Source of the DNA: a virus
Virus record (IMG/VR): IMGVR_UViG_3300044730_001822
Location: 1-64,000 of that record
Reading direction: 5' to 3' (one strand)
Length of the DNA: 64,000 nucleotides
Shown here: positions 2,256-36,871 of the stretch, piece by piece
How the letters are laid out: every line of letters starts with the position of its first letter
Numbering within the stretch: the first letter of the stretch is position 1
Position numbers and translations under genes: made by a program
Notes under the pieces: model-generated
Told to the model about the DNA's origin: nothing
Seen by the model: only the letters and a program-made list of their open reading frames with translations
The model's database searches: none

Positions 2256-3053
2256 TTAGGCCAAACGGCCCATCATGGTGCGATACCAGCCAGGCGTGCC
2301 TTCTTGGATGGCCGGTAACTCTATGCCCTTGGGCTCTAGGTCAGCACGGGCCTGGGCGAGTTTTGCATCACGTTTGGGATCGTTTTGCAGTGCTGTTACC
2401 ACTGCTTCTACACCTGAGAGATCTTTGGGCGTGGCGCCAGGATACAATATCAATTCTGCTATTTCTCCAGGGTCAGTTGTGATCATTTCGCCTGTGGCAC
2501 GATCTTTCAAGCCATACTGTCCAGACCAAGTATAGCCTTGCGGATATTTCTTGTTGGCGCTGGCCTTGCCCAGGCTGTTGAGTATGATGTGCTTGACAGC
2601 ATCTTTGTACTGTGTGTCAGCGGCAGCACGTTTGGCAAATCTTGCCCATTCAATATTGGGTTCAAACATAAAGTCTACCTGCACAAATCCCAACTGCGGC
2701 TTGCCGGCCACAGGAGCCATGAAACTCATGGTTTCATATTCGGTGGGTTTTTTATCTTTGGTGTTACCACCTGCTATCACTAGATCGGGATCCATTTCCT
2801 GGCTCACTGCCCAGTTTTTTAGTATGCCGTAGAGTCGGGATTTGGGTGTTTGAGTTTTATCCACGGCTAGATCTATATCACCAGACTCGGCACGCAGACC
2901 CGTGCTGCCCAGCATATTGTCCAACAAGGGTAATCCTGTGAGTTGTTCCAACCAAAGCACTGTGGGCTTGACATCAGTCTGCTTTATGGTCTTGGTCAAG
3001 ACTTCGCCAGTCTTGGGATTTTTGAATTGGTTGCCGCCTTCTGCGAGAATCAT
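2256..3053 (-). CDS. Nucleotidyltransferase-fold protein
   Basis: 265 residues. GSTGLRAESGDIDLAV (about 49-64) fits the pol-beta-type nucleotidyltransferase pattern GS-x(8)-DxD, and VQVDFMF supplies a third acidic residue, so the metal-binding triad looks complete. Substrate is unknown; nucleotidyl transfer to a protein, RNA or small molecule are all possible. The start ATG 3053 overlaps the stop of the upstream gene (ATGA), implying translational coupling with the head-targeted protein 3050-3847. The N-terminus MILAEGG contains LAE, which fits the gp21 cleavage rule, but it is too short to be called a targeting peptide. Confidence 0.7.
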   Translation of the reverse strand: MILAEGGNQFKNPKTGEVLTKTIKQTDVKPTVLWLEQLTGLPLLDNMLGSTGLRAESGDIDLAVDKTQTPKSRLYGILKNWAVSQEMDPDLVIAGGNTKDKKPTEYETMSFMAPVAGKPQLGFVQVDFMFEPNIEWARFAKRAAADTQYKDAVKHIILNSLGKASANKKYPQGYTWSGQYGLKDRATGEMITTDPGEIAELILYPGATPKDLSGVEAVVTALQNDPKRDAKLAQARADLEPKGIELPAIQEGTPGWYRTMMGRLA

Positions 3054-3847
3054 AGGCGTTGTAATGCTTGATTTAAAAATGCTTGCCAGGTCTGTGGCAC
3101 CGGTTTATCTCTGGCATCCAGCCACTGTCCTTGATCGGTAAGACTAAACACATTTTTACGATAACTGGCCAACGTAGGAGCATTGCCAGTAGCAGGTTTG
3201 ATATACAGGCCTTGACCAGCATCTATCCAACCACTTGATTGCTGAGCATCTGCCTGTGGCTGTGCTGCCTGTGGCTGTGCTGCTTGCGGTTGTGCTGCTT
3301 GCGGTTGTGCAGATTGTGCTGTCTGCGGCTGTTGTCCAGCCGGTTGTTGTCCGTTGGGACCAACCATTTGTTTAATTGCACCAAGCATTTTTTCTTGCCC
3401 GGGATCAAAACCCAATCCTTTAAAAGAACTAAATCTATTCCGGCTCTGTGGATCTTCTCTTGATCCAACAGCCTGTGTTCCCAGATCTTGGAACAGTTTT
3501 CTAACCTGACCTGCACTGTTGCGCATCTGCGAGATTTTATTGATCACCGCTTCGATACGCTGTTTTGACCCAGCATCATATCGATCTAGATCGTACTTCA
3601 ACATGGTATTTTCAACAAAATCTCTTAGATAATCTGCATAAGTTTCAGGAGGAATATCGTTGGCGCTTCTTACACCTAGACTGCGTGTGATCTGTGGCAC
3701 ACGATTGATCCATTGTTTCCAAGCAGCATCTGACAGCGTTTTGGTATCTGCCTGGCTGCGGCGATTGGCCATAAACTGTTGAACCCCGGCCGGCATCATA
3801 CGACTTAACAATCCAGCTTCGCTGATATATATTTCTTTAATTTTCAT
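3050..3847 (-). CDS. Putative head-targeted protein with QAAQP repeats
   Basis: 265 residues. The N-terminus MKIKEIYISEAG resembles the T4 capsid targeting sequence, with ISE as a potential gp21 cleavage site. A helical region follows, then a Gln/Ala/Pro linker made of four QAAQP-type units (about 185-205), then a C-terminal domain with SGWIDAGQGLYIKPATG. No enzyme motif was recognised. It overlaps the upstream 81-residue gene by 11 bases and its stop overlaps the nucleotidyltransferase start. Packaging into the head is inferred from the N-terminus only. Confidence 0.65.
   Translation of the reverse strand: MKIKEIYISEAGLLSRMMPAGVQQFMANRRSQADTKTLSDAAWKQWINRVPQITRSLGVRSANDIPPETYADYLRDFVENTMLKYDLDRYDAGSKQRIEAVINKISQMRNSAGQVRKLFQDLGTQAVGSREDPQSRNRFSSFKGLGFDPGQEKMLGAIKQMVGPNGQQPAGQQPQTAQSAQPQAAQPQAAQPQAAQPQADAQQSSGWIDAGQGLYIKPATGNAPTLASYRKNVFSLTDQGQWLDARDKPVPQTWQAFLNQALQRL
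3251..3310. repeat. 15-bp tandem repeat, four units
   Basis: Four near-identical 15-base units inside the 3050-3847 gene encode the QAAQP linker. Such arrays change copy number by slippage. Confidence 0.75.
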
Positions 3848-24483: not shown

Positions 24484-26028
24484 TCACATGATGGCTATAA
24501 AGGGCATGGGCTGTATTATTTCGTCGTGATCGCGCCAGTGCTGGCTTATTTCTGCGTCAAAACTCTGTATTACGTCCATGGCTCTTACACACAGTATGGT
24601 TGACATGACCAAATCGTCGGTATCGCCGGGTTTGGCCTTGTAACTGTTGCCCGAAGCCACAAACACTTTCAGTTCCGATATAAGAGGGCGGCTGTGTAGT
24701 TTCATACGCCGAGATTCCAGCAAGTGTTTGAGTTTGGCGCAGGCTGTGATTTTGGTGCTGTGCGTGGTATTGAATCCGCGGCGTTTTTTCCCAGGTTCGT
24801 GCATGAAACTGCCGGGTATGTTCTCTTCGCCAAAATCTCTAAGACTGATCAAGGCCGCCTCACCAATGGTGTTGTTTTCCACTGTGTAGTAAATGTTCTG
24901 CGGTTCCTTGGTGATGCCTTCGATGTATCTGCAGATTTCTGCTATGATCTTGACCTGATCGGGTATGACTGTTTTGTTATGGCGCCATTCTGCCACCTGG
25001 CTGGTGGTGTTGGCTTCAAACACCTGTATGGCAGCAGCATCACCACCGGTGCCCAGGCTGGGATCCAGTCCTATCACATATGTTTTGCCTTTTACAGGCT
25101 GTTGATACCAGCGAACCTGTCCGTGTTTGAACACAGGCTCTTGACCCTCCAGTTCAAACAGTGTGTTGGCATTGATCAGTGTTTCGTCGGCAATGACAAA
25201 TTCACACAAGATCTCTCTGCGGAATCGATCTTCGCCCAGTTGGCTGCGCATCTGTTCTTCGTACTCATCACCGCGCTCAGGATGCTCACGCCAATTTGCT
25301 TGATATGCCTTGAATCCGTTGACGCCAAGATCAGTCTGGTTGCCAAACTCGTCGACTGTTTTGTTAGCGCCCTTCCACAGCAGAGCAAACTGATCCTCAT
25401 CAGAGTTAGGGGTTGATGTTATAATGGCTTTACCACCTGTGCTCAGCGTGGGGGATATGGATGTCCAAAATTCCTGCGCGATACTGGGTCTCACGAATGC
25501 AAACTCGTCTGCGTACAGCAAGGAGATTGACATACCTCGGCCTGTGTTTTCTGTTGTGGTCTGTGCTACTATCCTACTGCCGTTGTCAAAATCTATGCTG
25601 CCTTTGTTGTAACTGGTAGCACCGGCACGGATATGATTGGGGCAGGCTTCGTAGGCAAAACGTATGCGCTGCATGATCTCCTGTGCGCCTAGATACTTGT
25701 GTGCTGCTATCAATATAGTTGAGTCTGGCACAAACATGGCATACCATAATAGATAACCTGCGGCCGAAGTGGATTTACCAGTCTGGCGAGGCATGAGGCT
25801 GATACTGAATCTATAGTTGTGATAGTTGTGGATCAGGCGTTGTTGATATTCCCAGGGATGATACTGTATCTTGCCTTTTACCGGATGCTGTATGTAAAAA
25901 AAGTTATCCATAAAGTAAAGATAACCATCCACAGGATCCATACAAGTGGCCAGTTCCGCCTGTTGATCCAATGACCAATGGCTGCGAACGTAAGGGCTCT
26001 TGATTATCTCTACTGTGTTTTTACTCAT
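24484..26028 (-). CDS. 17: Terminase large subunit gp17
   Basis: 514 residues from ATG 26028. The ATPase domain has Walker A MPRQTGKST (79-87), Walker B ISLLYADEFAF (about 166-176) and the coupling motif ITSTPN. The RNase H-like nuclease domain has VIGLDPSLGTGGDAAA, a central Glu in YYTVENNTIGEAA and a C-terminal DTDDLVMS. It translocates DNA into the prohead and cuts concatemers. A TTG-started extension to 26085 exists but would overlap the upstream gene. GTAAATA sits five bases before the ATG. Confidence 0.93.
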   Translation of the reverse strand: MSKNTVEIIKSPYVRSHWSLDQQAELATCMDPVDGYLYFMDNFFYIQHPVKGKIQYHPWEYQQRLIHNYHNYRFSISLMPRQTGKSTSAAGYLLWYAMFVPDSTILIAAHKYLGAQEIMQRIRFAYEACPNHIRAGATSYNKGSIDFDNGSRIVAQTTTENTGRGMSISLLYADEFAFVRPSIAQEFWTSISPTLSTGGKAIITSTPNSDEDQFALLWKGANKTVDEFGNQTDLGVNGFKAYQANWREHPERGDEYEEQMRSQLGEDRFRREILCEFVIADETLINANTLFELEGQEPVFKHGQVRWYQQPVKGKTYVIGLDPSLGTGGDAAAIQVFEANTTSQVAEWRHNKTVIPDQVKIIAEICRYIEGITKEPQNIYYTVENNTIGEAALISLRDFGEENIPGSFMHEPGKKRRGFNTTHSTKITACAKLKHLLESRRMKLHSRPLISELKVFVASGNSYKAKPGDTDDLVMSTILCVRAMDVIQSFDAEISQHWRDHDEIIQPMPFIAIM

Positions 26029-26033
26029 GTAGG

Positions 26034-26040
26034 TATTTAC
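26034..26040 (-). promoter_or_regulatory. Late promoter-like GTAAATA before gp17
   Basis: GTAAATA followed by CCTAC and the ATG at 26028. One base off CTAAATA. Confidence 0.45.
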
Positions 26041-26053
26041 TACCAAAGATCTA

Positions 26054-26590
26054 TCACTGCAAATAGATCTTTGACAGTTGTTCAATGGTGCTGTCGGTGG
26101 TGGCGTCGTCGTGCTTGATACCTATGCCGCCTTTGGCCTGCCATTTGGCTATTTTTTCACCGTGGTCATCTACCAACACATTGGGTCTGCCGCCCTTCAT
26201 GGCATACCGGTGTTTGTCTGAAGTGAATATTGCGTCTTGGCTGACACCTGGCGTGTGTTGATCTAACCAGCGGCGCTTGCCTGCTGTGCTGGCTTCGTGT
26301 CTCATGCGCAATGGTGCCGACAAGATTGTGTAAGGTATTTTGTGTTGATGTAACCATGACAAGAGTTTTGCACCACCGCGTAGCATGGGCAAGGTGGCAA
26401 AAAATTCTTCTACGAACTCGTCGCCTTTGTCAACCAGTTTCATGATGTTGGCTGTTTGTGCGGCCACATCGCCCATGTCTCGATAATTTTTGAATCCAAA
26501 CATCTTGGCCCACTGCAGGAAAAAGTCGGCCTGCACGCCGTCCATGTCAAGATACAGATGTGGTTTAGGCTGTAATTCGCTAGCTCTCAT
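26054..26590 (-). CDS. HAD-family phosphatase, 5'(3')-nucleotidase-like
   Basis: 178 residues. HAD motif I is LYLDMDGVQADF (13-24), motif II lies near TILSAP, and motif IV is VLVDDHGEKIAKW (about 138-150). The layout resembles 5'(3')-deoxyribonucleotidases. It could recycle nucleotides or act on a phosphorylated metabolite. The N-terminus MRASELQPKP looks like a worn version of the MRAREFI.E peptide but lacks the cleavage-site Glu. ATG 26590 overlaps the preceding stop (ATGA). Confidence 0.75.
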   Translation of the reverse strand: MRASELQPKPHLYLDMDGVQADFFLQWAKMFGFKNYRDMGDVAAQTANIMKLVDKGDEFVEEFFATLPMLRGGAKLLSWLHQHKIPYTILSAPLRMRHEASTAGKRRWLDQHTPGVSQDAIFTSDKHRYAMKGGRPNVLVDDHGEKIAKWQAKGGIGIKHDDATTDSTIEQLSKIYLQ

Positions 26591-26775
26591 TTGACTTCCT
26601 GTACATTGCCCACCAAGGCAGTATGACCAAACTGGTCACGAACCAAGCGTCGGGCAAGATTGGCATTGGGCGCAGTGATGGTGGTGTCTATCATCTGTGT
26701 ATGTCCCACTTGTTTGATTTTAACACGCACCCGAAACAGTTTCATGTTTTTTGGCAAGAACTCACTGGCTTTCAT
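26587..26775 (-). CDS. Small hypothetical protein (MKASEFLPKNM start)
   Basis: 62 residues from ATG 26775, which has AAGG upstream. Beta-rich and basic: KLFRVRVKIKQVGHTQMIDT. The start MKASEFLPK resembles the neighbouring head-protein N-termini without the xE cleavage site. It overlaps both neighbours. Function unknown. Confidence 0.6.
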   Translation of the reverse strand: MKASEFLPKNMKLFRVRVKIKQVGHTQMIDTTITAPNANLARRLVRDQFGHTALVGNVQEVK

Positions 26776-27031
26776 CGTAGTGCCTTTCGCCGGTGAGTGT
26801 GGGTTTGGCAAACCAAAGTTTGAACCACTCTTTGGTACCAGGCTTGATGTTGCGCTCGCGTTCAACGCGTCTTAGGTCTGCTGCTAAATCTGGTTTGACT
26901 GCCGAACAATCATTTCTGGGCGCTGGTTGATCCAGACCCGCTAGACGCTTGATGTCGGCCAGACTGGTATCAACCGGGGTAAGTTCTACTTTTTTTTGAA
27001 GTTTAGCAGCAGTGTAAGGATCAAACATCAT
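26762..27031 (-). CDS. Small hypothetical protein with IKRLAGL motif
   Basis: 89 residues, starting MMFDPYTAAKLQKKVELTPV. It contains SLADIKRLAGLDQ, echoed by the C-terminus of scaffold gp22 (VIELKRLAGL). CTAAATA sits only four bases before the first ATG, in the loop of a six-base-pair inverted repeat, so the mRNA should be leaderless. Function unknown; the shared motif could be a head-core contact. Confidence 0.6.
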   Translation of the reverse strand: MMFDPYTAAKLQKKVELTPVDTSLADIKRLAGLDQPAPRNDCSAVKPDLAADLRRVERERNIKPGTKEWFKLWFAKPTLTGERHYDESQ

Positions 27032-27034
27032 CCA

Positions 27035-27047
27035 GTATTTAGCACTG
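27035..27047. promoter_or_regulatory. Late promoter CTAAATA (27036-27042) in a small inverted repeat
   Basis: GCTAAATACTGG on the minus strand. Arms TCCAGT and ACTGGA flank the element, starting at 27031 and ending near 27049. Confidence 0.6.
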
Positions 27048-27049
27048 GA

Positions 27050-27697
27050 TTATTTGATATCCATTGGCCTTCTTTTGCGGAGGACAAAAGCATACTGGCT
27101 GTCTGTAAAATTTTCATCTGTATCTTTGACTTTATATTCTACAGTTAAAATTTGATTTTTTTCTAGATCAAATCCTGCTTTGAAAAACAGGGCGGCCCAC
27201 ATCTCGATGGTCAAGACGCTGTAAACACCTTTGCCCATTTCGTGTTTAGCCGGTTGTTGCGGGCAGGGTACTTCTATGTACAAAGGTGCTTTTAATTTCA
27301 AAATACGATTGTATTCCATTAGTGTAAAGAAAGGAAATACGCTGTGCTGTAAACACTGTCGAGCAAAGATAAAATCCACCGATTCGTCTTTGTTAGGCAA
27401 GAAACTGATATCTCGACGATCAAAATTTAACTGTCTTTCTTGTAGGCTACGCACAGTATTAAGATTGTAATCAAGGCTACAAATGTTTGTATAACCTTGC
27501 TTTTTCATTTCAATTTGGAAATAACCATATCCTGAACCCACATCCTTGATATCAGCATCTTTGGCAAGATTCAAGGGATTGACGAAGTTTTCAATCACTT
27601 GTGCAGTGAGTCTTTCGTCGCGATCGTTGGCTCGATGCTCTTCTAACTGCGTATAAATGAATTCGTTGTAAAATTTAAGTTTGATGGGTTCTAGCAT
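27050..27697 (-). CDS. SAM-dependent methyltransferase (class I)
   Basis: 215 residues. The SAM-binding motif I is DIKDVGSGYGYFQIEM (about 48-63), motif II is ICSLDYN with the acidic residue, and ESVDFIFARQCLQH resembles the motif IV region. The Methyltransf_11-like layout suggests a small-molecule substrate rather than DNA. It has its own CTAAATA element (27728-27734) and an inverted repeat over the start codon (27691-27719). Substrate unknown. Confidence 0.75.
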   Translation of the reverse strand: MLEPIKLKFYNEFIYTQLEEHRANDRDERLTAQVIENFVNPLNLAKDADIKDVGSGYGYFQIEMKKQGYTNICSLDYNLNTVRSLQERQLNFDRRDISFLPNKDESVDFIFARQCLQHSVFPFFTLMEYNRILKLKAPLYIEVPCPQQPAKHEMGKGVYSVLTIEMWAALFFKAGFDLEKNQILTVEYKVKDTDENFTDSQYAFVLRKRRPMDIK

Positions 27698-27719
27698 AGT
27701 GTTATTAGTTATGCGCTAG
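27691..27719. promoter_or_regulatory. Imperfect hairpin over methyltransferase start codon
   Basis: CTAGC-ATA (691-698) pairs with TAT-gc-GCTAG (710-719) with a two-base bulge. It includes the ATG at 27697. Confidence 0.4.
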
Positions 27720-27727
27720 ATTTAGGT

Positions 27728-27734
27728 TATTTAG
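27728..27734 (-). promoter_or_regulatory. Late promoter CTAAATA
   Basis: TCTAAATAAC on the minus strand, about 30 bases before ATG 27697, just after the amidotransferase stop. Confidence 0.65.
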
Positions 27735-27751
27735 ATTTTTTGGAGGATTTG

Positions 27752-28462
27752 CTAAGTGGCTACTTGACCTAACCAAGTACTGTAAACATGATCAGCTGTG
27801 GCCTGATGTTTTTCTATGTATAAATCTAGTCCTTGTACAATGTCTTGGCCGCTTTGCACTGATGTGTACCTTTCGCGGGCTTCGGCCCAATTGGGATCCT
27901 CATCCAGTGCCCAGGCCTGTGCTTTTGTCTCATCCATTTCAATATGGAACTGCATGGCCAGGTGTGGCCCAAAGCACCAGGCCTGATTGGGACAAGATGC
28001 ACTAGTGGCCAAACGTGTGGCACCTGTGGGCACTGCAAATGCTTCATAATGCCATTGCATGATCATGGCAGTGGGATTGGGTCCAAACCAATGATCAACC
28101 AGTGGATCAGACTCATATTCAATGGGCTGCCATCCTATCTCTGGTTGTGGACTGGCGGTAATTTCTGCGCCCAGTGCGCGACTCATCAGCTGTCCTCCCA
28201 GGCAGTGACCTATCACCGGACGATCTTTAAACACTGCCTGCAATACCAATATTTCTGCTTGACGATTTGACAACAAGGGATCATTGGCGCTCATGCCGCC
28301 GCCCATGATGGCCATGGCCGAATAAGGTTCTATGCTGGCCGGAAAGGCCTGATCGGATCCAGCATTGTAGTTTTCATAGGGAATATTGTGCTGTTTCAAC
28401 CAAGTCACAAGATATGCTGGCCACTCGGGAGTTTGATGTTGGAGTATTAGTACAGGTTTCAT
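27752..28462 (-). CDS. Class-I glutamine amidotransferase-like protein
   Basis: 236 residues from ATG 28462. The nucleophile elbow is IGHCLGGQLMSRALG (Cys about 86) and the C-terminal catalytic pair is in MQFHIEMDE (His and Glu), so the triad appears complete. It resembles stand-alone GMP-synthase-type GATases that use glutamine or hydrolyse gamma-glutamyl compounds. A synthetase partner is not evident nearby. Such a metabolic enzyme between the terminase subunits is unusual. It belongs to a chain of overlapping or closely spaced genes. Confidence 0.8.
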   Translation of the reverse strand: MKPVLILQHQTPEWPAYLVTWLKQHNIPYENYNAGSDQAFPASIEPYSAMAIMGGGMSANDPLLSNRQAEILVLQAVFKDRPVIGHCLGGQLMSRALGAEITASPQPEIGWQPIEYESDPLVDHWFGPNPTAMIMQWHYEAFAVPTGATRLATSASCPNQAWCFGPHLAMQFHIEMDETKAQAWALDEDPNWAEARERYTSVQSGQDIVQGLDLYIEKHQATADHVYSTWLGQVAT

Positions 28463-28475
28463 AGACAATGATAGA

Positions 28476-28874
28476 TCACTGCCCATATCCACGAAATGCT
28501 TTGACGGGACTTACCTTGTGTACGTGTTCGGCTTCGGTACTGCGATTGTCTGTGAGTTTTTTGACTTCGCCGGCACCCACCGACTTGGCTGCTGCGTTGA
28601 TAATTTTAAGATCTTCGTCAGTATAGGTTGCCAACAATGGATCTCCAGCAAAGGCACCTGCTGGTGGTGTGGGAAAGTCAGGAGCACCTGCCATGGCTAT
28701 ACCAAAGCGCCACTGTGTATAAGGACTGCCGCCTTGTTTGGTTTGGCTGATATCAGGCATGGAGATAGCGCCTTTGATAGCAGACTTGTGCGACTTGGGC
28801 AGTTTATCTGCATTGGCTGGCACATCGGCTGCGCTGCCAAACTTGGCTTCATTGACAAATTCTCGTGCTCTCAT
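28476..28874 (-). CDS. Putative head-targeted internal protein (MRAREFVNE)
   Basis: 132 residues. The N-terminus MRAREFVNEAKFG matches the T4 capsid-targeting pattern and offers VNE as a gp21-like cut. The middle contains YTQWRFGIAMAGA and YTDEDLKIINAAAK; the end is KVSPVKAFRGYGQ, shared with two neighbours. The start overlaps the upstream stop (TAATG). It is predicted to be carried in the head; the function after delivery is unknown. Confidence 0.7.
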   Translation of the reverse strand: MRAREFVNEAKFGSAADVPANADKLPKSHKSAIKGAISMPDISQTKQGGSPYTQWRFGIAMAGAPDFPTPPAGAFAGDPLLATYTDEDLKIINAAAKSVGAGEVKKLTDNRSTEAEHVHKVSPVKAFRGYGQ

Positions 28875-29749
28875 TATAAATCTTTCATATTCATATGGCC
28901 AAAGGGTGGATCAACGTGTGTGTTTTGCCACAGCGCACGATTGCTCAATATCTCAACCCACACATTGGTGTCGGGACGATTGAGCCGCCAAAAATCAAAC
29001 TCCATGTGACTACTGATAGGGCGACAATACAAAGTCCGCTCCTTGGGCACACACAGTTGCTGGCTTGTAGTCCTCATCTTCTTTCGTTGTGTGCTGGTTC
29101 TCATGATATTTAGTTGGGCATCATTTATGTATACTTGGCACATTCCGTCTACTAGATCTTCGGGTTTTTTAGCAGACTTGACCACTTGTTCGGCCAGCAG
29201 TAATCTGGTTTCACTGCTGAGTCGGCTGATAGTTTCGCTGGTGTTTGAAGGTTTCCATTGATACCCTGCGTCGGGCATCCATAGTCCGTGATTGCTTCTA
29301 GCCACAGTATTCTTCTTGGCAATTTTTTTCACGATAGATCTAAAAGGCCCTTTGCCGTCATCGTCAGTGGCTTCTATCAGATATAAATCATCCGCATTGA
29401 ACACTATGGTGCAGCCACCTAGTTGTCGTTTAACCAACAACTTCACAGCATCCAAGGGATCCTGATACAACAAAGCCTGTGCAATAATCCTGCCATCGGG
29501 ACTGGTATGTTCTGTGCCGGCTTCCACTTCGCTTTCGTCGTCGTAGACATCAAGACTGGTGTTTAGTATACTAAGCCCGGCACTGTTGATACCTTCTTTA
29601 TAGCCAGTGACACGATCGTGCATCATCATGCGATCCACACCTTGCTGTTCGCTTTCAATGAAATCTAATACAGGAGTGTAGTTGCGATCCCGATTCTTGG
29701 CGCCGGCCCATCCTATGCCAGGAAAGTATTTTGCAACTATGATGCACAT
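28874..29749 (-). CDS. Ntn-hydrolase (choloylglycine/acyltransferase-like)
   Basis: 291 residues. Met1 is followed by Cys2, which would become the N-terminal nucleophile, and KNRDRNY (18-24) supplies the Arg/Asp pair of the family. INSAGLSILNTS and ARSNHGLW follow the usual core order. Known members cleave linear amide bonds such as N-acyl-homoserine lactones, penicillins, bile salts and acylated peptides. It sits between two head-targeted genes with start-stop overlap but lacks the targeting peptide itself. Substrate unknown. Confidence 0.7.
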   Translation of the reverse strand: MCIIVAKYFPGIGWAGAKNRDRNYTPVLDFIESEQQGVDRMMMHDRVTGYKEGINSAGLSILNTSLDVYDDESEVEAGTEHTSPDGRIIAQALLYQDPLDAVKLLVKRQLGGCTIVFNADDLYLIEATDDDGKGPFRSIVKKIAKKNTVARSNHGLWMPDAGYQWKPSNTSETISRLSSETRLLLAEQVVKSAKKPEDLVDGMCQVYINDAQLNIMRTSTQRKKMRTTSQQLCVPKERTLYCRPISSHMEFDFWRLNRPDTNVWVEILSNRALWQNTHVDPPFGHMNMKDL

Positions 29750-29751
29750 GG

Positions 29752-30132
29752 TTACTGCCCGTAGCCCCGGAATGACTTTACTGGGCTGGTGCGATTGACG
29801 TAATCTGCTTCTAGACTGCCCTTTTCTATATACTCTTCGGGTTTCATGTCTAGCTTTTTCATGATGGCTATGAGTTTTTCACGATCGTATTCGGTGTATG
29901 CGCTGAACAAGGGCAAGTTACCAAAGAAACTGATGTCGTCTACTTTGTCAAGTTCTTTTGGGTCCATACCGGCCAATGAACACACGCGATAGAAGTCGTA
30001 GTATCTGCCCCAATACACATCGCCACCTCCGCCGGGACCCACCAATCCAGGATGCGCCATTTCAAACTCGTGGCGGGCGGCAGAACGCCGATTGTTCCTT
30101 TTGCCTTCGGTAATGAATTCGTGTGCTCTCAT
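29752..30132 (-). CDS. Putative head-targeted internal protein (MRAHEFITE)
   Basis: 126 residues. The N-terminus MRAHEFITEGKRNNRR carries ITE as a predicted gp21 site followed by a basic stretch. The middle has YWGRYYDFYRVCSLAGMDP; the C-terminus RTSPVKSFRGYGQ is almost the same as in 28476-28874. It overlaps the upstream nuclease-like gene (ATGA). Packaging is inferred from the N-terminus. Confidence 0.7.
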   Translation of the reverse strand: MRAHEFITEGKRNNRRSAARHEFEMAHPGLVGPGGGGDVYWGRYYDFYRVCSLAGMDPKELDKVDDISFFGNLPLFSAYTEYDREKLIAIMKKLDMKPEEYIEKGSLEADYVNRTSPVKSFRGYGQ

Positions 30133-31100
30133 ACTGTAACTTTTATCCTTGGCATCATCTCGCCCTCCGGAGCAAGTATGTATGGTTGATCTGATTTGAT
30201 GTTAGGCAATAATTCTTCGATCGAAGTAAAATATTGTGCTGTTCGTCTTGGCACGCTCATTATCAATAGACCATTGAATCCAGAATATGCCTGATAGTTG
30301 GCATATCCAACAGTGATAACAGCCTGTTTGATGTCTTGTGCTGAACCATTCATTAGGGCCCGAGCATACATACTATTGTCTACTTTGTTAAAAGTGGCCT
30401 GAGCAATAAGATCACATAATTTTTTCATCTGAGCTGGTTTTAGCCCAATTTTTTGTTTGAGATATTCACGTATCTGTAACCAAGCATTTACATTGACTCG
30501 CTGTGGTATATCAAATCCGCTGACATCCATGAGTGCTTCTCTTATGGCATTAAGGCTCATATTGGCTTTGCGCGGATTGATCCAACGTCCACCACTCTTC
30601 TGTTCAGTCTTGAGTTCTACAAAACCAACATCTTTTACCTCTAAATCTCCGCCGCCGGATTCTTGCCCGGTAAATCGTATGTCTGGACTCATGATGCTGA
30701 ATGCTAATTCTCCGGGACCAACACCTTGTTTAATAATTGGAACTAGATTGTTAAAAACACGTTGCGGGAAACCGGGAGTTACAAATTGATCATAACCAAC
30801 TTTGCTTTTACTAAACAAATTCTTGATATCAATAAAACCTTTGGAGTAATTGTCAGCAAAAGATAATTTTTCATCTACTGTGCCCTCAGTATTCAACACT
30901 ACTTGTGTAAGTATATCCAAGAATTTTTTTGCATCAACATCCTGTTTCATTGCTGTGTTTATTCTTCCAACAACATCGCTAGATTTGAGAGCATTGTAAA
31001 CTTTGTTAAGCAGAGATTCATCATTGGTTTGATTTATCAAATCAGTGACAACTGCTTTGAGTTTTTGTGCATCTTCTACAATAATTTCGTGTGCTTTCAT
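30129..31100 (-). CDS. Putative head-targeted PD-(D/E)XK nuclease
   Basis: 323 residues. The N-terminus MKAHEIIVEDAQK fits the capsid-targeting pattern with IVE as cut site. A helical region (about 15-125) precedes GVGPGELAFSI, then GGGDLEVKDVGFVELKTE (about 150-167): an upstream Glu, then GD and ELK spaced as in PD-(D/E)XK nucleases. The C-terminal part has RTAQYFTSIEELLP. It overlaps both neighbours in the cassette. A nuclease delivered with the DNA could attack host DNA or rival phage genomes; this is inference. A helicase or methylase partner is not fused. Confidence 0.65.
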   Translation of the reverse strand: MKAHEIIVEDAQKLKAVVTDLINQTNDESLLNKVYNALKSSDVVGRINTAMKQDVDAKKFLDILTQVVLNTEGTVDEKLSFADNYSKGFIDIKNLFSKSKVGYDQFVTPGFPQRVFNNLVPIIKQGVGPGELAFSIMSPDIRFTGQESGGGDLEVKDVGFVELKTEQKSGGRWINPRKANMSLNAIREALMDVSGFDIPQRVNVNAWLQIREYLKQKIGLKPAQMKKLCDLIAQATFNKVDNSMYARALMNGSAQDIKQAVITVGYANYQAYSGFNGLLIMSVPRRTAQYFTSIEELLPNIKSDQPYILAPEGEMMPRIKVTV

Positions 31101-31480
31101 TTCAACACACCTTTGACTGCTCTCACTGGACTTTTCTTTCCTGTGGTGGATGATTCTTCACTTGCTGCTGTTGATAATTGCGTTGCGCCGCCCACGTTCA
31201 TCATGGCCAAGGCTTTTTTCATCAACGCTACTTCGCTTTCATCGTAGGCAACAACAATCATACCATCACCCCAGGGAGACTCTTTATGGAATGTATCGCT
31301 GCCTTCTTTTTCCAGTGCTTCTTTAGCGCCAGCACCTGCTAGTGCTACGCCATAGCGATACTGCACGTATGAATTTTGATTAGGCAATCCCGGAATGATA
31401 AATGTGGATGGTAATGCGTCTGCTACGCCTGGTTGCAGACTGCCGTGAGCTTGCTCACTGATAAACTCACGGGCACGCAT
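31097..31480 (-). CDS. Putative head-targeted internal protein (MRAREFISE)
   Basis: 127 residues. The N-terminus MRAREFISEQAHG has ISE as predicted cut site. The middle VQYRYGVALAGAG and YDESEVALMKKALAMMN parallel the 132-residue neighbour, and it ends KKSPVRAVKGVLK, a variant of the SPVKAFRGYGQ tail. First of the chain of overlapping genes running down to 27752. Confidence 0.7.
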   Translation of the reverse strand: MRAREFISEQAHGSLQPGVADALPSTFIIPGLPNQNSYVQYRYGVALAGAGAKEALEKEGSDTFHKESPWGDGMIVVAYDESEVALMKKALAMMNVGGATQLSTAASEESSTTGKKSPVRAVKGVLK

Positions 31481-31481
31481 T

Positions 31482-31814
31482 TTAGATTATGGTTTGTCCA
31501 CCAATGACACCGGCCAATGCTGAACTGGCTGTGCCTAACTCTGTGGCTGTGTATCCACTGCCTACGACGGTAACTTTGTTTTGAGCGCCGCAGTAGACAT
31601 CGCGTGTGGTAGCAGCAGGAATCTGCATAGGAGTAGTATAAAGGTTTCCGGCGGGTGTGGTGTTGCCAATAACCACATTGGCATTGCCATAGATGCTGCC
31701 ATCCACCAGAGCCACTTGATACACTTGATAAGTTACCGCGGTATTGGTGCTGATGCGTAGTTTATCGGTATAAACTGTTGCGTTGCTGAGACTGGTATAG
31801 ACGTTGACTGCCAT
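31482..31814 (-). CDS. Small beta-rich virion protein (putative)
   Basis: 110 residues rich in Thr/Val/Ala/Asn, starting MAVNVYTSLSNATVYTDKLR, with one Cys. No family recognised. AAGGA precedes ATG 31814. Composition resembles small virion proteins elsewhere in the window. It has no targeting peptide. A decoration role is a guess. Confidence 0.6.
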   Translation of the reverse strand: MAVNVYTSLSNATVYTDKLRISTNTAVTYQVYQVALVDGSIYGNANVVIGNTTPAGNLYTTPMQIPAATTRDVYCGAQNKVTVVGSGYTATELGTASSALAGVIGGQTII

Positions 31815-31829
31815 TTTATTTTCCTTTGA

Positions 31830-32744
31830 TTACCACTTGCGGCACGACCAATAACGTGCCTTCCAGCGCGGTCCTGGATTGTCACAGTTGTGTCTTGCAC
31901 GGAAACTGCGGCGACGTGCTGGATTAGATTTTTTAATACGCATATTGGGATCGCCAAAGTTGACCTTGACAACATTTCCGTTGGGTTTTTTGACATAGAC
32001 CTTGAACTTTTTCACATCGCCTTGCATGGGCTTGCCCAAAGAAACTTTGCGTCCACGATATTCGGCTTCATCTAAGTCTGCTGCAGGTTTAGCGCGACCA
32101 TATAGATCAATTTCAAATTTTCCGCCACCTAGTTCAATCAGTTGATCCATGAGTTCGCTAGACAAAGATTTGTCGCCATTCTCTCTGGCTGCATTCAAAG
32201 CTGCTACTAGTTCGTTATATTTCTTTTTATCAACAATATGACTGGAGCCTTCGTCAACAGTGATATCTTCCTTTTGTATACCTGCCTGCGATAGACCTTT
32301 ACGTGCAAGATGTCTTGCTTTGTGTTTGATCACGTTTCCAAATTGATCTTTGTCCGATGTGTTTTGGTCCGGAGTAAAGGGAATATCTTTGGCCATGCGG
32401 CGGCGATCGATTTCTGCTTGCTGTGCTTCTATTTCTTTTTGAAGGCGATCAGCTTCATCGCCGTACTCTCGGGCAGCATCTGCCATGGAACGCCCTGATA
32501 GAGATTTGAATCTTGAATCAATTTTATCCAATGCAGATTTTGCTTCGGCAACATATCCATAGCCTTCCAGCAACTCAACACCACGATCATCTAACTCAAT
32601 GACAATGCCATCATTGACACACTCAGTAATGAAACCAGAAATCAACATTTCATCGCGAGCGATTTCAATTTCGAATACATCACCTACTGCTGGTTTGGTA
32701 ATGTAATCTTCGGCTTCGGTGAGATAATCTTTTAGACTGCGCAT
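31830..32744 (-). CDS. Putative head-targeted protein with Cys-containing C-terminal domain
   Basis: 304 residues. The N-terminus MRSLKDYLTEAEDY gives LTE as cleavage site; further [LV]xE-type sites occur (YVAEAK, DLDEAE). A charged coiled-coil-like middle (about 75-120) is followed by a C-terminal domain, about 245-304, with KVYVKKPNGNVVKVNFGDP and ARHNCDNPGPRWKARYWSC, a conserved-looking module seen in T4-like environmental phages. The two Cys and His suggest metal binding. ATG 32744 overlaps the preceding stop by one base. Confidence 0.7.
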   Translation of the reverse strand: MRSLKDYLTEAEDYITKPAVGDVFEIEIARDEMLISGFITECVNDGIVIELDDRGVELLEGYGYVAEAKSALDKIDSRFKSLSGRSMADAAREYGDEADRLQKEIEAQQAEIDRRRMAKDIPFTPDQNTSDKDQFGNVIKHKARHLARKGLSQAGIQKEDITVDEGSSHIVDKKKYNELVAALNAARENGDKSLSSELMDQLIELGGGKFEIDLYGRAKPAADLDEAEYRGRKVSLGKPMQGDVKKFKVYVKKPNGNVVKVNFGDPNMRIKKSNPARRRSFRARHNCDNPGPRWKARYWSCRKW

Positions 32745-35698
32745 TATCCTGCTTGTCCTTTGATCGTGGTAATATCATTGTCGCCTTTGTAACCTTTGGC
32801 ATACTGAAGTTTCATACCATTGAGACCGCCACTGAGACGATTCACCAACTCATCAACATCGCCATATTCTGTGGCGTCTGCTGTGTTGCCGGAATTTTCT
32901 TCAGTGACTGCTTCCTCGGCACAGGTGCCGGGATCATACTTTTGATACATCTCGCGGCCCATGCCAGCCATTTTCAGCAGTTCAACCAAACTCTGTGCAT
33001 CGTCTTGCGTGGCTGTGACTGTAACAGTATCGTCGCCGGTGCTGCTTTGATTAGTGCTGACATTGATGTCCTCTGCTACCATTTGTTGGAACTGGCTTTC
33101 GTAGGCTTCGTAGACGCCTTTGCCATAATAGCCGCCGGATTTGGATTCTTCTGACTCGTCAACTTTTTCATCTTTGTCGTCTTTGTCTTTGTCCTCGTCT
33201 TTTTCTTCGCTATCTTTTTTGTCGTCGTACTCGATGTCTTTCTTAACTTCTTCGCCATCTTCTTCTGCGTCATCGTCGCGCTTTTCGGCATCAGTGTCAT
33301 CGTGATCACGTTTGTCGTCGTACTCCACATCCTTGGCTACTTTTTTAGCAGCCTTTTCTGCTTTGTCGTCTTTTTCGGCATCTGACTCTTCCTTTACTGG
33401 CATACCAGCCAATGCTTTCATACGCTCCAATACAGCAATGGTTTCGTCGATTTCTTTGGTACTGAAATCCTGACCAAAGGCCTTGAAACTATCTTTGCCA
33501 GATTTTTCAGCTGCTGCATCCTGCTGTTTAAGATATTCGCCTTTGCTGACTTCGTCAAGATCGGTTTCTTTGCCTGAACCGCGAGGAATATGATTCATAG
33601 CCTGGTCTACAAAATCATCTATGCTGTCTTCGTCGCTTCCAAAAGGTTGTTGCCGTTTCAACCATTTGTTCAATATAGGGTCTTTGGCCCGGGATTCTTG
33701 GGGGTCGAAGGCCTGCATGTTGGGATCATACTGCAGATGTATCTCAGTGCCATTGAACATGACCTGTGCCTTCATCTCATCGTCGCCCAGCACATAGGTG
33801 TATCGGTTGCCTTTGTCGGTGACAAAGGTCTCGGTAGAAGCTTCTTTCACAGGTAATTCAAGTGCCATGTCTTTGGCTCGTTGTAGCACACGCTGACCAG
33901 GATCTTTGATATCTTTTTTGTAATCCTGTGTCATGGTTTTGGTCAATGTGGAATCGCCTGGCTGCTGCCAAGGAAGATCTTTACCAGAAAGAACACCTTC
34001 ATCCATCCCATCTGCCGACTCTTTAGGATAAGCAGTGCTGCCATATTTTACACTTGATGGCATGGGGTTAGAACCAGTCATGGCAGATTTCATTGTATCC
34101 CATACGCCTTCATCCATCCCATCTGCCGACTCTTTAGGATAAGCAGTGCTGCCATATTTTACACTTGATGGCATGGGGTTAGAACCAGTCATGGCAGATT
34201 TCATTGTATCCCATACGCCTTCATCCATCTCTGCGTTTTTCTTTTTCCATGCTGTGGCATAAGCGATGGATTTTTCTTGCGGTGTAAGTTTGCCATCTTT
34301 GGCATAGCCTTGTTTGATATGCTTGACCATGCGCTCATACTTGTCACCCGGGGGTGCTTTTTCTGTCATGGGAGCAGCAAAGGCAGCAACTTCTACGCCT
34401 TCAACCATAGCGCGGCACTTGGAAACGTTGCCTTGGAATGCAACACCAGGATAGGCTGCACGGATTTCGCGCTTCCAGGAAGGATATGATTCCACAATCA
34501 TCATGTTGGCTGCTTGGATACCTTCTTTGACTGTACGGCTAAATTTTTCGCCGCCTTTCATACCCCAGGTTGTGCCTTTGTGCTTGGGCAGTTTGTAAAG
34601 GCTGGCCTTGGGAGCTTTGCCGCCCCAAGGCAAACTTGCAGAAGTTTTTTCAGATTCTTTCTTCTTGGGACGACCACGACCACGTGGCTCATCTGATTCT
34701 TCGTCTTCGTCTTCGTCTTCCCAATTCACTTCCTTGGCTTTGTGTTTGATACCTTTGTCTGTTTTTGTGATGGTACCACCTTTGTGTGTTTTTTCTTGTT
34801 CGCCCAGTGTGACTCCGGCAGCATTGCGGCCGTCATCGCCTGTGTCGGGCATATTGACATTGGCCTCACCTAGAGGAGGATCATACGCACCCATTTCATC
34901 ATTGCTCTGTGGATCAGTGACCATGCCTGCTTCATCCATCTTGTCATAGCGTGTGCGAATCTTGGCCATGGTCTCTTTGCTGGCATGATTACGTCCGGCT
35001 TTTTGCAAAGCTTTCATGCCTTCTTCGCCATATTTTTTCTTGCCGAGATATGCTTGTAGTGCAGATTCATCCATGGCATCTTCGCCCACAGATTCTTTGG
35101 CACGTAGTTTGGCCAACACAGCACCAGCTACTCTTTCACCGGCTTCTTTGCTGCCATAACGCTCACCGGCCGACTTTGCAATTTTACTAAAATTCTTGCC
35201 AGGCTTGCCAATGTCTTTTCCGGCACTGGCCTTCTTGGCACTGTAACCAACTTCAGCCACAGGTGTGAGATTCAATCCACCTGAATAGTTTTCGTTCAGG
35301 ATAGATTTTGTCTTGTTGATGCTTTCTACCAAGCTGTCTGCTTGTGCAGCCATGGTACCACTGGGAGTAATCATGGCAATGCCAGCGTGCTTGAGAATGC
35401 TACGCAACTCTGGAGATTCTTTTACTTCTTTTTTATCAGCAGCGGCTTTCTTCATGGATTCTTTTTTGTTGCCATCTTTGTCAAGATCCAAGAAGTCTGG
35501 CTTGTCACCTTCCATGACTTCGCCTTCGGGGCACTCGCAGTGGCTTTCATACATACCGCATTCGTTGCAGGTCTCACCATGCACACCTTCGCTCACAGTC
35601 TTGAAACCATATGCTTGAGTGTTGTTGGCCGCATCACGATAGTGAGGGTCTTTTTCAGCAATGGCTTTGAGTTTGTCTAATACGTTGTAAATGTTCAT
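32744..35698 (-). CDS. Large charged prohead-core-like protein
   Basis: 984 residues, very rich in Lys/Glu/Asp. A Cys-rich knuckle lies near the N-terminus (CNECGMYESHCEC, about 42-54). The middle includes KLTPQEKSIAYATAWKKKN and a perfect duplication of 37 residues starting MDEGVWDTMKSAMTGSNPMP. A long acidic-basic low-complexity stretch (about 790-870) follows. Many [IL]xE sites would allow gp21 processing into peptides. It lies directly between two head-targeted genes. A prohead core or DNA-neutralising role is inferred; it has no recognised enzymatic motif. Confidence 0.65.
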   Translation of the reverse strand: MNIYNVLDKLKAIAEKDPHYRDAANNTQAYGFKTVSEGVHGETCNECGMYESHCECPEGEVMEGDKPDFLDLDKDGNKKESMKKAAADKKEVKESPELRSILKHAGIAMITPSGTMAAQADSLVESINKTKSILNENYSGGLNLTPVAEVGYSAKKASAGKDIGKPGKNFSKIAKSAGERYGSKEAGERVAGAVLAKLRAKESVGEDAMDESALQAYLGKKKYGEEGMKALQKAGRNHASKETMAKIRTRYDKMDEAGMVTDPQSNDEMGAYDPPLGEANVNMPDTGDDGRNAAGVTLGEQEKTHKGGTITKTDKGIKHKAKEVNWEDEDEDEESDEPRGRGRPKKKESEKTSASLPWGGKAPKASLYKLPKHKGTTWGMKGGEKFSRTVKEGIQAANMMIVESYPSWKREIRAAYPGVAFQGNVSKCRAMVEGVEVAAFAAPMTEKAPPGDKYERMVKHIKQGYAKDGKLTPQEKSIAYATAWKKKNAEMDEGVWDTMKSAMTGSNPMPSSVKYGSTAYPKESADGMDEGVWDTMKSAMTGSNPMPSSVKYGSTAYPKESADGMDEGVLSGKDLPWQQPGDSTLTKTMTQDYKKDIKDPGQRVLQRAKDMALELPVKEASTETFVTDKGNRYTYVLGDDEMKAQVMFNGTEIHLQYDPNMQAFDPQESRAKDPILNKWLKRQQPFGSDEDSIDDFVDQAMNHIPRGSGKETDLDEVSKGEYLKQQDAAAEKSGKDSFKAFGQDFSTKEIDETIAVLERMKALAGMPVKEESDAEKDDKAEKAAKKVAKDVEYDDKRDHDDTDAEKRDDDAEEDGEEVKKDIEYDDKKDSEEKDEDKDKDDKDEKVDESEESKSGGYYGKGVYEAYESQFQQMVAEDINVSTNQSSTGDDTVTVTATQDDAQSLVELLKMAGMGREMYQKYDPGTCAEEAVTEENSGNTADATEYGDVDELVNRLSGGLNGMKLQYAKGYKGDNDITTIKGQAG
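33996..34217. repeat. 111-bp perfect tandem duplication
   Basis: Two identical 111-base units (33996-34106 and 34107-34217), with identity continuing about 12 bases into a third unit. In frame, encoding 37 residues each. Confidence 0.9.
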
Positions 35699-35700
35699 GA

Positions 35701-36333
35701 TTATTTTCCTACGTTGATGGTCATATCGCCGGCACGCATTTTGGCGGGGCGGCTTACTCGACTGAAAGGACTGGTGTTGTCCTGTGGCAAGTCATTGGTG
35801 GTTTTTGCTTTGGGTGTTTTACCACCGGCTACTTCAAACTTTGCGCCATCTTTGGCTGCTTCTGCTGCCATGGCAGCATCTCTAGTGGCGTAGCGTTTGC
35901 TGAGTTCTTTTTGCTCGGCACTGGGTGCGCCTAGGTCTGTGGTCATTAACAAAGAATCTTTTTCGCTGGTTTTTTCTGTATCCAACTGTCCTTCAGCATC
36001 CTTTTCAATGCTGTCGTCCCACTTGCGATCCACTACCACGATGTTGGCAGTTGGCACACCGCACAGATGTACCTGCTGCTGGATCTCATCTAGGCTGGCA
36101 GGATACTTGAATGTAAAATCAATGATGTTGATTTCTGTGTTTTTCAAGCCAGGAAAATCCGAAGGTGTGGCCAGGATAGGCGTTTTTTTCGCTGTGCTCA
36201 TTGATACCACATCGTACTTGTCTAGGCGTTGCTTGATATCTGCCTGGCATTTGGAATCCAGTTCACCGGCAATTTTTATGCGGTAACTGAACTCCCTGGC
36301 ATCTTCTATTAAGTATTCTTTAAAACTTTTCAT
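35701..36333 (-). CDS. Putative head-targeted protein (MKSFKEYLIE)
   Basis: 210 residues. The N-terminus MKSFKEYLIEDAREF gives LIE as predicted cleavage site and is the closest here to T4 MKTYQEFIAEA. An alpha/beta domain follows (about 16-100) with SYRIKIAGELDSKCQADIKQ and HLCGVPTANIVVVDRKW, then a low-complexity tail ending AGDMTINVGK. AGGAA precedes ATG 36333 and CTAAATA lies at 36356-36362. It leads the cassette that runs toward gp17. Confidence 0.7.
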   Translation of the reverse strand: MKSFKEYLIEDAREFSYRIKIAGELDSKCQADIKQRLDKYDVVSMSTAKKTPILATPSDFPGLKNTEINIIDFTFKYPASLDEIQQQVHLCGVPTANIVVVDRKWDDSIEKDAEGQLDTEKTSEKDSLLMTTDLGAPSAEQKELSKRYATRDAAMAAEAAKDGAKFEVAGGKTPKAKTTNDLPQDNTSPFSRVSRPAKMRAGDMTINVGK

Positions 36334-36367: not shown

Positions 36368-36871
36368 TTAATGTTTTACTTCGCCTTCTTTTAGTCTACG
36401 CATGAGTTCGTTGCGATCTAAAATCACGCCTTCTGCTGTGGGTATAGCAGTGGGGCTGCTGAGTGAATCTTCTGATTGCCGCAGTTGATCGCCTTTGAGT
36501 TTGGCGTGCTTGAGTTGCAGGTCAATTTGACGCAGTTTTTTGTTTACCTTGGCTGTTTTAGCAGTGATAGCGTGCCCCAGCATGGTGCCAGCCACAGCAA
36601 ATATCTCACTTGCGTATCTGCTGTCCACTTGCATACCCAGATTCATCAAATCTTCGTAACTTTCCTTGGCCAAGCCCACTAGTTCGTCAATTTCCGTGTC
36701 AGCTGCTTCCAGGCCCTTGACGGCAGGCAGGGCCGACTCTATGCGTTCTAAGTTGGCCAACGCTGTGGCAGTAACGGGCACATCTTCCGATTCTATCTGC
36801 ACAGCCGGAGTTTCCACCACAGTTTCTTCATCCTGCGGCAATTCAAACAATTCTTCTAATTTTTTGGTCAC
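36368..36871 (-). CDS. 16: Terminase small subunit gp16
   Basis: 167 residues from GTG 36871, preceded by AGGAGG and overlapping the gp4 stop (GTGA). Helical; the segment YEDLMNLGMQVDSRYASEIF followed by GHAITAKTAKVNKKLRQIDL matches the conserved core of gp16 in T4-like cyanophages. It recognises DNA and regulates gp17 during packaging. In T4, genes 16 and 17 are adjacent; here about 10 kb separates them. Confidence 0.8.
   Translation of the reverse strand: MTKKLEELFELPQDEETVVETPAVQIESEDVPVTATALANLERIESALPAVKGLEAADTEIDELVGLAKESYEDLMNLGMQVDSRYASEIFAVAGTMLGHAITAKTAKVNKKLRQIDLQLKHAKLKGDQLRQSEDSLSSPTAIPTAEGVILDRNELMRRLKEGEVKH

What the first reader, a model, noticed from the sequence alone, without database searches (positions are those of the whole stretch)
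26054..36333. Cassette of probable head-packaged proteins inserted between the two terminase genes
Five of the genes here (35701, 31830, 31097, 30129, 29752) and 28476 encode N-termini of one pattern: M[KR]-x(2-3)-E/Y-[FYI]-[IVL]-x-E within the first 10 residues. T4 internal proteins use MKTYQEFIAEA as a capsid targeting sequence, removed by gp21 after [IL]xE, and gp21 is present in this window. The downstream domains are unrelated to each other, as expected for a delivery tag on varied cargo. Genes overlap by ATGA or TAATG and include enzymes (Ntn-hydrolase, amidotransferase, methyltransferase, HAD phosphatase). gp16 and gp17, adjacent in T4, are pushed about 10 kb apart by this block. The delivery claim is inference.
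Basis: partly seen in the sequence, partly recalled or inferred. Interest (0 to 1): 0.85.

Follow-up and report, generated by a model that had tools for sequence, protein, structure and literature searches.

The report
Phage proteins tagged for head packaging
A large group of uncultured T4-like phages appears to carry a short removable N-terminal "address tag" on many different proteins, so that they are loaded into the virus head, trimmed by the head protease and probably injected into the host cell together with the DNA.

Summary
The six N-termini are real (MKSFKEYLIE, MRSLKDYLTE, MRAREFISE, MKAHEIIVE, MRAHEFITE, MRAREFVNE) and not chance: 6 of 13 block genes against 1 of 93 elsewhere in the phage (Fisher 7e-6). 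They resemble the capsid targeting sequence of T4 internal proteins (MKTYQEFIAE). Two details are wrong: three of the six (31097, 29752, 28476) are paralogues, not unrelated cargo; and the gp16-gp17 gap is a clade trait with a conserved core, not a one-off insertion. In loci that hold gp17, tagged genes number 163 upstream, 11 downstream, 0 antisense. A pattern scan of IMG/VR found the tag on about 35 other proteins, including an ADP-ribosyltransferase, GNATs, GH19 lysins and kinase-like proteins. In a nuclease-like family the leader changes length and sequence, yet [ILVF]xE stays at the domain border, as expected for prohead-protease cleavage. gp21 active-site residues are conserved. Relatives of two such families are virion proteins by MS in cultured phage PA5oct. 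Packaging, cleavage and injection themselves are not shown; the untagged enzymes of the block have no support as head proteins, and tagged endolysins are a puzzle. Most likely a new, expanded variant of the T4 internal-protein system.

The parts
35701..36333 (-). Core tagged protein, 210 aa, MKSFKEYLIE|D (tag codons 36333-36304); orthologue of PA5oct gp282 virion protein
   Evidence: PHROG 14802 virion structural protein 3.8e-8; PA5oct gp282 ESI-MS/MS matches at 3.8e-15; orthologue tags MKTFAKYLAE, MNTLAKYLAE, MKKFHQYLAE, MKNFQQYLTE, MKTLQDYLTE
32744..35698 (-). 984-aa core protein, no N-terminal tag, many [ILVF]xE sites; PA5oct gp281 occupies the same place
   Evidence: second in the genome after scaffold gp22 for [ILVF]xE enrichment, z 3.1, 23 sites against 13.3 expected; positional counterpart PA5oct gp281 is MS-detected, no sequence match claimed
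31830..32744 (-). Tagged protein, 304 aa, MRSLKDYLTE|A (tag codons 32744-32715)
   Evidence: orthologues MKSFQEYLAE and MKNFRDYLSE
31482..31814 (-). Untagged conserved neighbour, 110 aa, unknown
   Evidence: conserved in the same place in relatives
31097..31480 (-). Tagged 127-aa protein, MRAREFISE|Q (tag codons 31480-31454), member of the new ~125-aa family
   Evidence: no PHROG for any of 80 family members; no match above chance in 50,697 cultured-phage records
30129..31100 (-). Tagged nuclease-like protein, 323 aa, MKAHEIIVE|D (tag codons 31100-31074); invariant E131, GGGD152, E162-x-K164
   Evidence: alignment of 8 divergent members; model has pLDDT under 50 only at residues 1-9 and 124-129
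29752..30132 (-). Tagged 126-aa paralogue, MRAHEFITE|G (tag codons 30132-30106)
28874..29749 (-).
   Evidence: no Pfam, no PDB relative
28476..28874 (-). Tagged 132-aa paralogue, MRAREFVNE|A (tag codons 28874-28848)
27752..28462 (-). Untagged class-I glutamine amidotransferase domain
   Evidence: Pfam PF00117 1.3e-8
27050..27697 (-). Untagged methyltransferase, with a relative in 52 of the loci searched
   Evidence: Pfam PF08241 3.1e-9
26587..26775 (-). Small ORF with tag-like start MKASEFLPKN lacking the Glu
26054..26590 (-). NT5C/HAD phosphatase with tag-like start MRASELQPK lacking the Glu; sister phages have MRAKEFVRRED plus an extra N-terminal region
   Evidence: Pfam PF06941 5.3e-10
24484..26085 (-). 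gp17 large terminase
   Evidence: PHROG 36964 5e-117
36368..36871 (-). gp16 small terminase (by synteny and homology to the PA5oct and Phosso counterparts)
63098..63748 (-). gp21 prohead protease with conserved His81 and Ser134/135
   Evidence: PHROG 207 3e-57; PDB 5jbl 1.1e-13; alignment with T4 gp21
61988..63088 (-). gp22-position scaffold protein, QLINE|S near the N-terminus, richest gene in [ILVF]xE
   Evidence: PHROG 10922 5.5e-81, an unnamed family; z 4.7; scaffold role by position between gp21 and gp23
60767..61960 (-). gp23 major capsid protein, candidate processing site YLKE42|SSAG
   Evidence: PHROG 138 5.7e-98
3050..3847 (-). Second tagged locus, 265 aa, MKIKEIYISE|A (tag codons 3847-3818)
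   Evidence: only other strict hit in the genome; relatives L108 and L189 carry MRASEFIGE and MRANEFINE proteins in the matching place

Best explanation
The N-terminal 9-10 residues of 35701, 31830, 31097, 30129, 29752 and 28476 (and probably 3050-3847) are a removable capsid-targeting propeptide of the T4 internal-protein type. Steps: (1) the genes lie in the head operon around gp16/gp17 (shown: position and strand); (2) the tag binds the scaffold core and draws the protein into the prohead (inferred from T4); (3) gp21 cuts after [ILVF]xE, freeing the mature protein (inferred; supported by conservation of the site and of the gp21 active site); (4) the protein stays with the DNA and is ejected into the host cell (inferred from T4). 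35701 and 31830, with 32744, look like core head components. The ~125-aa paralogues and the nuclease-like 30129 look like variable cargo that would act on the host or its defences. The same tag is found on about 35 other cargoes in uncultured phages.
For: Tag far above chance. T4 genetics: the first 10 residues of IPIII suffice, targeting depends mainly on residues 4 and 7, processing on 8 and 10 (PMC9026906); 35701 and 31830 fit these positions, and MRAxEFIxE keeps the EFIxE core of MKTYQEFIAE. Positive control: the 10-mer pattern hits T4 at only three places, two of them ipII and ipIII. Of 202 members of the ~125-aa family 8 lack the regex tag: four are contig edges, two keep a shifted site (VLSE, QLME), two are odd frames. 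Position 8 is free while 7 is aliphatic and 9 is Glu, with synonymous codon variation. In the nuclease-like family the leader varies in length and sequence but ends in [ILVF]xE at the domain border in all 8, and the model is disordered at residues 1-9. The tag sits on about 35 other cargoes in a scan made without regard to cargo, with 32 matches and 0 reversed-pattern controls in 9 long records. Tagged ORFs near gp17: 163 upstream, 11 downstream, 0 antisense. gp21 is present in 7 of 8 tagged records of 150 kb or more. PA5oct gp282 (35701 orthologue) and gp279 (4e-25 to tagged L232) are virion proteins by MS. One tagged cargo is an ADP-ribosyltransferase, as T4 Alt is.
Against: No virion proteomics was found for a phage bearing the MRAxEFIxE tag. 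In PA5oct, MS-detected proteins are not enriched for N-terminal [ILV]xE, and its gp282 lacks LxE (MKSFRDYYDAS). Five of 36 tagged non-family cargoes are GH19 endolysin-like, an odd cargo for injection. Ten tagged records of 43-151 kb showed no gp21, perhaps because they are fragments. The tag is one residue shorter than the T4 CTS in most cargoes. The untagged enzymes in the block have no such evidence.
Confidence: 0.75

Rival explanations
1. The tagged proteins are structural or scaffolding parts of the head that are trimmed during maturation but are not effectors and do nothing in the new host.
For: 35701 and its relatives are conserved core virion proteins; 32744 and 31830 are rich in [ILVF]xE like the scaffold gp22; the ~125-aa family has no recognisable enzyme domain.
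Against: Tags occur on enzymes: ADP-ribosyltransferase, GNAT, GH19 and a ParB-like protein, and on kinase-like and HExxH-containing proteins by eye; the nuclease-like 30129 is patchily present.
Confidence: 0.3
2. The tag directs proteins to another place, for example tail or baseplate, membrane, or a regulated proteolysis pathway, and the resemblance to the T4 CTS is convergent.
For: GH19 endolysin-type cargo; some tagged genes lie outside the head block; tag one residue shorter than in T4.
Against: Core EFIxE as in T4 IPs, [ILVF]xE kept when the leader changes, gp21 co-occurrence, position in the gp16-gp17 block.
Confidence: 0.15
3. The shared N-terminus reflects only common descent or recombination of a 5' end that works as a translation-initiation cassette, without a role for the encoded residues.
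For: Three of six window cases are paralogues; the ATG-AGA-GC start is frequent.
Against: Synonymous codons vary at E, F, I and A while the residues stay; positions 4 and 8 are free; shifted sites restore [IL]xE; leaders unrelated in sequence keep [ILVF]xE.
Confidence: 0.05

Closest known systems
T4 internal proteins IPI, IPII, IPIII with capsid targeting sequence (Tequatrovirus)
   Same: Short N-terminal leader ending in [ILV]xE, divergent mature domains, gp21-type protease and gp22-type scaffold in the same genome
   Different: Leader mostly 9 residues (MRAxEFIxE); genes sit between gp16 and gp17, whereas T4 ipII/ipIII sit next to gene e; many more cargo families; no sequence relation of the mature parts to T4 IPs was found
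T4 Alt ADP-ribosyltransferase
   Same: One tagged cargo in another contig (L180) has an ADP-ribosyltransferase domain
   Different: Not in this window; tag differs from Alt's MELITELFDE; homology to Alt itself was not tested
PA5oct (Wroclawvirus) gp282, gp281 and gp279 virion proteins
   Same: Same gene order gp4-gp16-gp282-gp281-gp17-gp279; gp282 is the 35701 orthologue; gp279 is homologous to tagged L232, L233 and L183 proteins; all three MS-detected
   Different: PA5oct has no MRAxEFIxE-type match in its genome and only 2.3 kb between gp16 and gp17
P1 Dar antirestriction head proteins (DarB capsid-targeting N-terminus)
   Same: An N-terminal signal sends defence-countering proteins into the head for delivery (PMC9024508)
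   Different: Unrelated phage and signal (residues 6-10 implicated, first 30 sufficient); no separate T4-type scaffold there

Membership tests
T4-type CTS internal proteins | N-terminal leader of about 10 residues with aromatic or aliphatic targeting positions and [ILV]xE at its end | tested here: met
   6 window genes; positions per PMC9026906
T4-type CTS internal proteins | Prohead protease gp21 with intact active site in the same phage | tested here: met
T4-type CTS internal proteins | Leader conserved while mature domains diverge | tested here: met
   36 tagged proteins share only the tag residues; those residues were fixed by the search pattern itself, so the informative part is the cargo diversity
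T4-type CTS internal proteins | Leader cut after Glu by gp21 | not testable with these tools
   indirect support only: site kept in divergent leaders
T4-type CTS internal proteins | Present inside the head | not testable with these tools
   indirect: PA5oct gp282 and gp279 relatives MS-detected
T4-type CTS internal proteins | Ejected into the host | not testable with these tools
   none here
T4-type CTS internal proteins | N-terminal [ILV]xE enriched among virion proteins of a cultured relative (PA5oct); a side test, not a defining feature | tested here: not met
   7/76 MS-detected against 25/311 other ORFs, p 0.44; the MS set includes many tail proteins and enzymes
T4 internal proteins by homology of the mature domain | Sequence match of the mature part to known internal proteins | tested here: not met
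   no PHROG or Pfam match for the ~125-aa family; 35701 only weakly matches phrog_2667 internal head protein at its N-terminus, E 0.078
PD-(D/E)xK nuclease (30129) | E...D...ExK constellation on an alpha-beta-beta-beta core | tested here: inconclusive
   residues invariant in 8 members, predicted helix then three strands, but no PDB fold match and only a weak, non-significant PD-(D/E)XK hit in BFVD

The most novel reading that the evidence does not exclude
A whole lineage of uncultured T4-like phages uses one sequence-readable address tag (MRAxEFIxE and kin) as a general head-loading code for dozens of effector families, so that virion-delivered effectors can be listed directly from metagenomes; the ~125-aa tagged family, not found in cultured phages, is a previously undescribed class of injected protein.
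Probability: 0.55. Interest if true: 0.8.

Novelty: new variant of a known kind. Interest (0 to 1): 0.62.

Why it matters
T4 delivers a few internal proteins, and which proteins other phages inject is mostly unknown. If the tag is what it looks like, a nine-residue pattern identifies head-packaged, probably injected proteins across a large uncultured group of phages. That turns 'which phage proteins enter the cell with the DNA' into a sequence search with simple bench tests, and yields candidate anti-defence and host-takeover enzymes with a ready-made localisation hypothesis.

Tried and rejected
Cultured relatives of the ~125-aa family: none above chance (the Ruegeria V10 match at E 4 was treated as chance). 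Enrichment of N-terminal [ILV]xE in PA5oct MS proteins: not found. Fold search of the 30129 model against PDB: nothing significant. The model of the ~125-aa family is low confidence (pLDDT 71.5, pTM 0.38), so it was not used for a fold search. The C-terminal SPVKxFKGY motif as a second general tag: not found outside the family in the loci at hand. A DNA-level role of the start region: disfavoured by synonymous variation. Defence-system library hits for block proteins are weak and partial and were not used. Literature searches for this tag and for CTS in uncultured phages found no description in the open library.

Full report
What was checked. All six genes and N-termini named in the finding are present on the - strand at the stated coordinates with ATG starts. 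The window is part of a 133,426-base virus record of a T4-like phage: gp17, gp16, head-closure gp4, sheath, tubes, gp21, gp22-position scaffold and gp23 are recognisable. The closest cultured relatives by gp17 are PA5oct-like Pseudomonas phages (52%), Sinorhizobium phage Phosso and Agrobacterium phage Atu_ph07.

Is the pattern more than chance? With a strict rule (M[KR], then [FYILVM][ILV]xE ending by residue 11), 6 of 13 genes called in the block match against 1 of 93 elsewhere (3050-3847, MKIKEIYISE); Fisher p 6.6e-6; random N-termini of the same composition match at 0.0016 per gene. Three of the six are paralogues, so the independent count is four families; that is still well above the 0.2 matches expected in the whole genome.

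Corrections to the observation. 31097, 29752 and 28476 belong to one family of about 125 residues with a conserved core and an SPVKxF[KR]GY-type C-terminus. The gap between gp16 and gp17 is not peculiar to this phage. In PA5oct it is 2.3 kb and holds gp282 (35701 orthologue) and gp281, both detected by ESI-MS/MS; in contigs L076, L078, L085, L179 and L181 it is 6.6-10.4 kb and holds one to six tagged genes. The block is therefore a clade trait with a conserved core and a variable part. In T4 itself genes 16 and 17 overlap.

The tag across relatives. In IMG/VR contigs found through gp17 the ~125-aa genes stand upstream of gp17, often in tandem. Over all loci with gp17, tagged ORFs number 163 upstream on the same strand (0.31 per kb), 11 downstream (0.02 per kb) and none antisense; some loci overlap, so the counts are not fully independent. 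Of 202 family members only 8 lack the tag by regex: four are cut by contig ends, two have a shifted site that restores [IL]xE (MRAREFVSAVLSE, MRASEFISAQLME) and two are odd frames. None of 80 members matches any PHROG, and no relative was found in 50,697 cultured phage records above chance.

The tag on other cargo. Pfam finds GH19 chitinase/lysozyme (5), GNAT (2), an ADP-ribosyltransferase (1, E 9.5e-13), a ParB-like protein, LysM and unknown domains. By eye there are also kinase-like and HExxH proteins. In nine long records a general form of the pattern matches 32 times, with 0 matches for the reversed control; PA5oct, Phosso and Atu_ph07 have none. Seven of the eight tag-bearing records of 150 kb or more contain a gp21-type protease.

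Evidence for cleavage. T4 genetics (PMC9026906) places targeting mainly in residues 4 and 7 and processing in 8 and 10 of MKTYQEFIAE, which was read here from the T4 record. 35701 (MKSFKEYLIE) and 31830 (MRSLKDYLTE) fit position by position; the MRAxEFIxE form keeps EFIxE. In 165 family tags P3 is I/V/L/M, P2 is free and P1 is Glu (the last is enforced by the selection regex, and the unfiltered census is). Codons vary synonymously, so the constraint is on protein. In the nuclease-like 30129 family eight divergent members have leaders of 7-20 residues that do not align, yet each ends in [ILVF]xE just before the conserved domain: IVE|D, VIE|D, VTE|D, LTE|S, LVE|D, ITE|A, LFE|D, LFE|A. The predicted structure of 30129 is disordered at residues 1-9 and helical from residue 11. 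gp21 keeps the His and Ser that read Ala in the T4 gp21 chain of PDB 5jbl. gp23 has YLKE42|S and gp22 QLINE|S. By density of [ILVF]xE, gp22 ranks first and 32744 second in the genome.

Evidence for virion location. PHROG 14802 (virion structural protein) matches 35701. PA5oct gp282 and gp279 are MS-detected; gp279 is homologous to tagged proteins L232, L233 and L183 (3.5e-25, 1.4e-23, 5e-14). This is evidence from relatives, not from a tagged protein in a virion.

Evidence against. In PA5oct, N-terminal [ILV]xE is not enriched among MS-detected proteins, and its gp282 has no LxE. GH19 endolysin-like cargo is unexpected for an injected protein. Ten tagged records of 43-151 kb showed no phrog_207 or phrog_138 match; they may be fragments, and the control note says that absence is not shown. 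Two of them carry T4-type tail-tube genes.

30129. The invariant E131, GGGD152 and E162-x-K164 on a predicted helix-strand-strand-strand unit suggest a PD-(D/E)xK nuclease, but no solved structure matches and only uncharacterised phage proteins match strongly in BFVD. This is a hypothesis.

Conclusion. The tagged genes are best read as CTS-bearing internal head proteins that work like those of T4, expanded in an uncultured lineage. Shown: tag, conservation, positions, protease, cargo diversity, relatives in virions. Inferred: scaffold binding, cleavage, ejection, function in the host. The untagged enzymes of the block are not covered by this conclusion.

Noticed in passing
window 26054-26590 and 26587-26775: Two gp17-proximal genes start MRASELQPK and MKASEFLPKN, like the tag but without the terminal Glu; in sister contigs L085/L086 the NT5C gene starts MRAKEFVRRED and carries about 150 extra N-terminal residues. 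They may be decayed or uncleaved tags.
   Followed up: partly
window 3050-3847: Second tagged gene (MKIKEIYISE) next to 2256-3053, whose homologue PA5oct gp253 lies in a run of MS-detected structural genes; relatives have MRASEFIGE/MRANEFINE proteins in the same place.
   Followed up: partly
window 32744-35698: The 984-aa protein contains a tandem duplicate of about 37 residues (MDEGVWDTMKSAMTGSNPMPSSVKYGSTAYPKESADG); the open frame of the close relative in L085 is shorter (941 against 1015).
   Followed up: no
L104:2992-3612: Tagged GH19 protein in which the tag is followed at once by a Tat-like signal (DRRGFLGALGAGAMAAAGVPAQA; weak Pfam TAT_signal match), as if cleavage would expose an export signal.
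   Followed up: no
L004 (Atu_ph07) 14397-15212: The annotated start of FDI40_gp113 appears too far downstream; the open frame upstream begins MKTLQDYLTES, restoring the tag.
   Followed up: no
L245 (T4 NC_000866 18966-19130): T4 gene 61.1 (unknown, 54 aa) starts MKTFKEFIKE, the only T4 match to the 10-mer tag pattern besides ipII and ipIII; a possible unrecognised internal protein.
   Followed up: no
L183, L230 and L233: Single phage regions with three to four neighbouring tagged genes of different kinds.
   Followed up: partly
~125-aa family, e.g. window 28476-28874: Besides the tag, a C-terminal S-P-[VI]-K-x-F-[KR]-G-Y motif is strongly conserved; it was not seen outside the family.
   Followed up: partly
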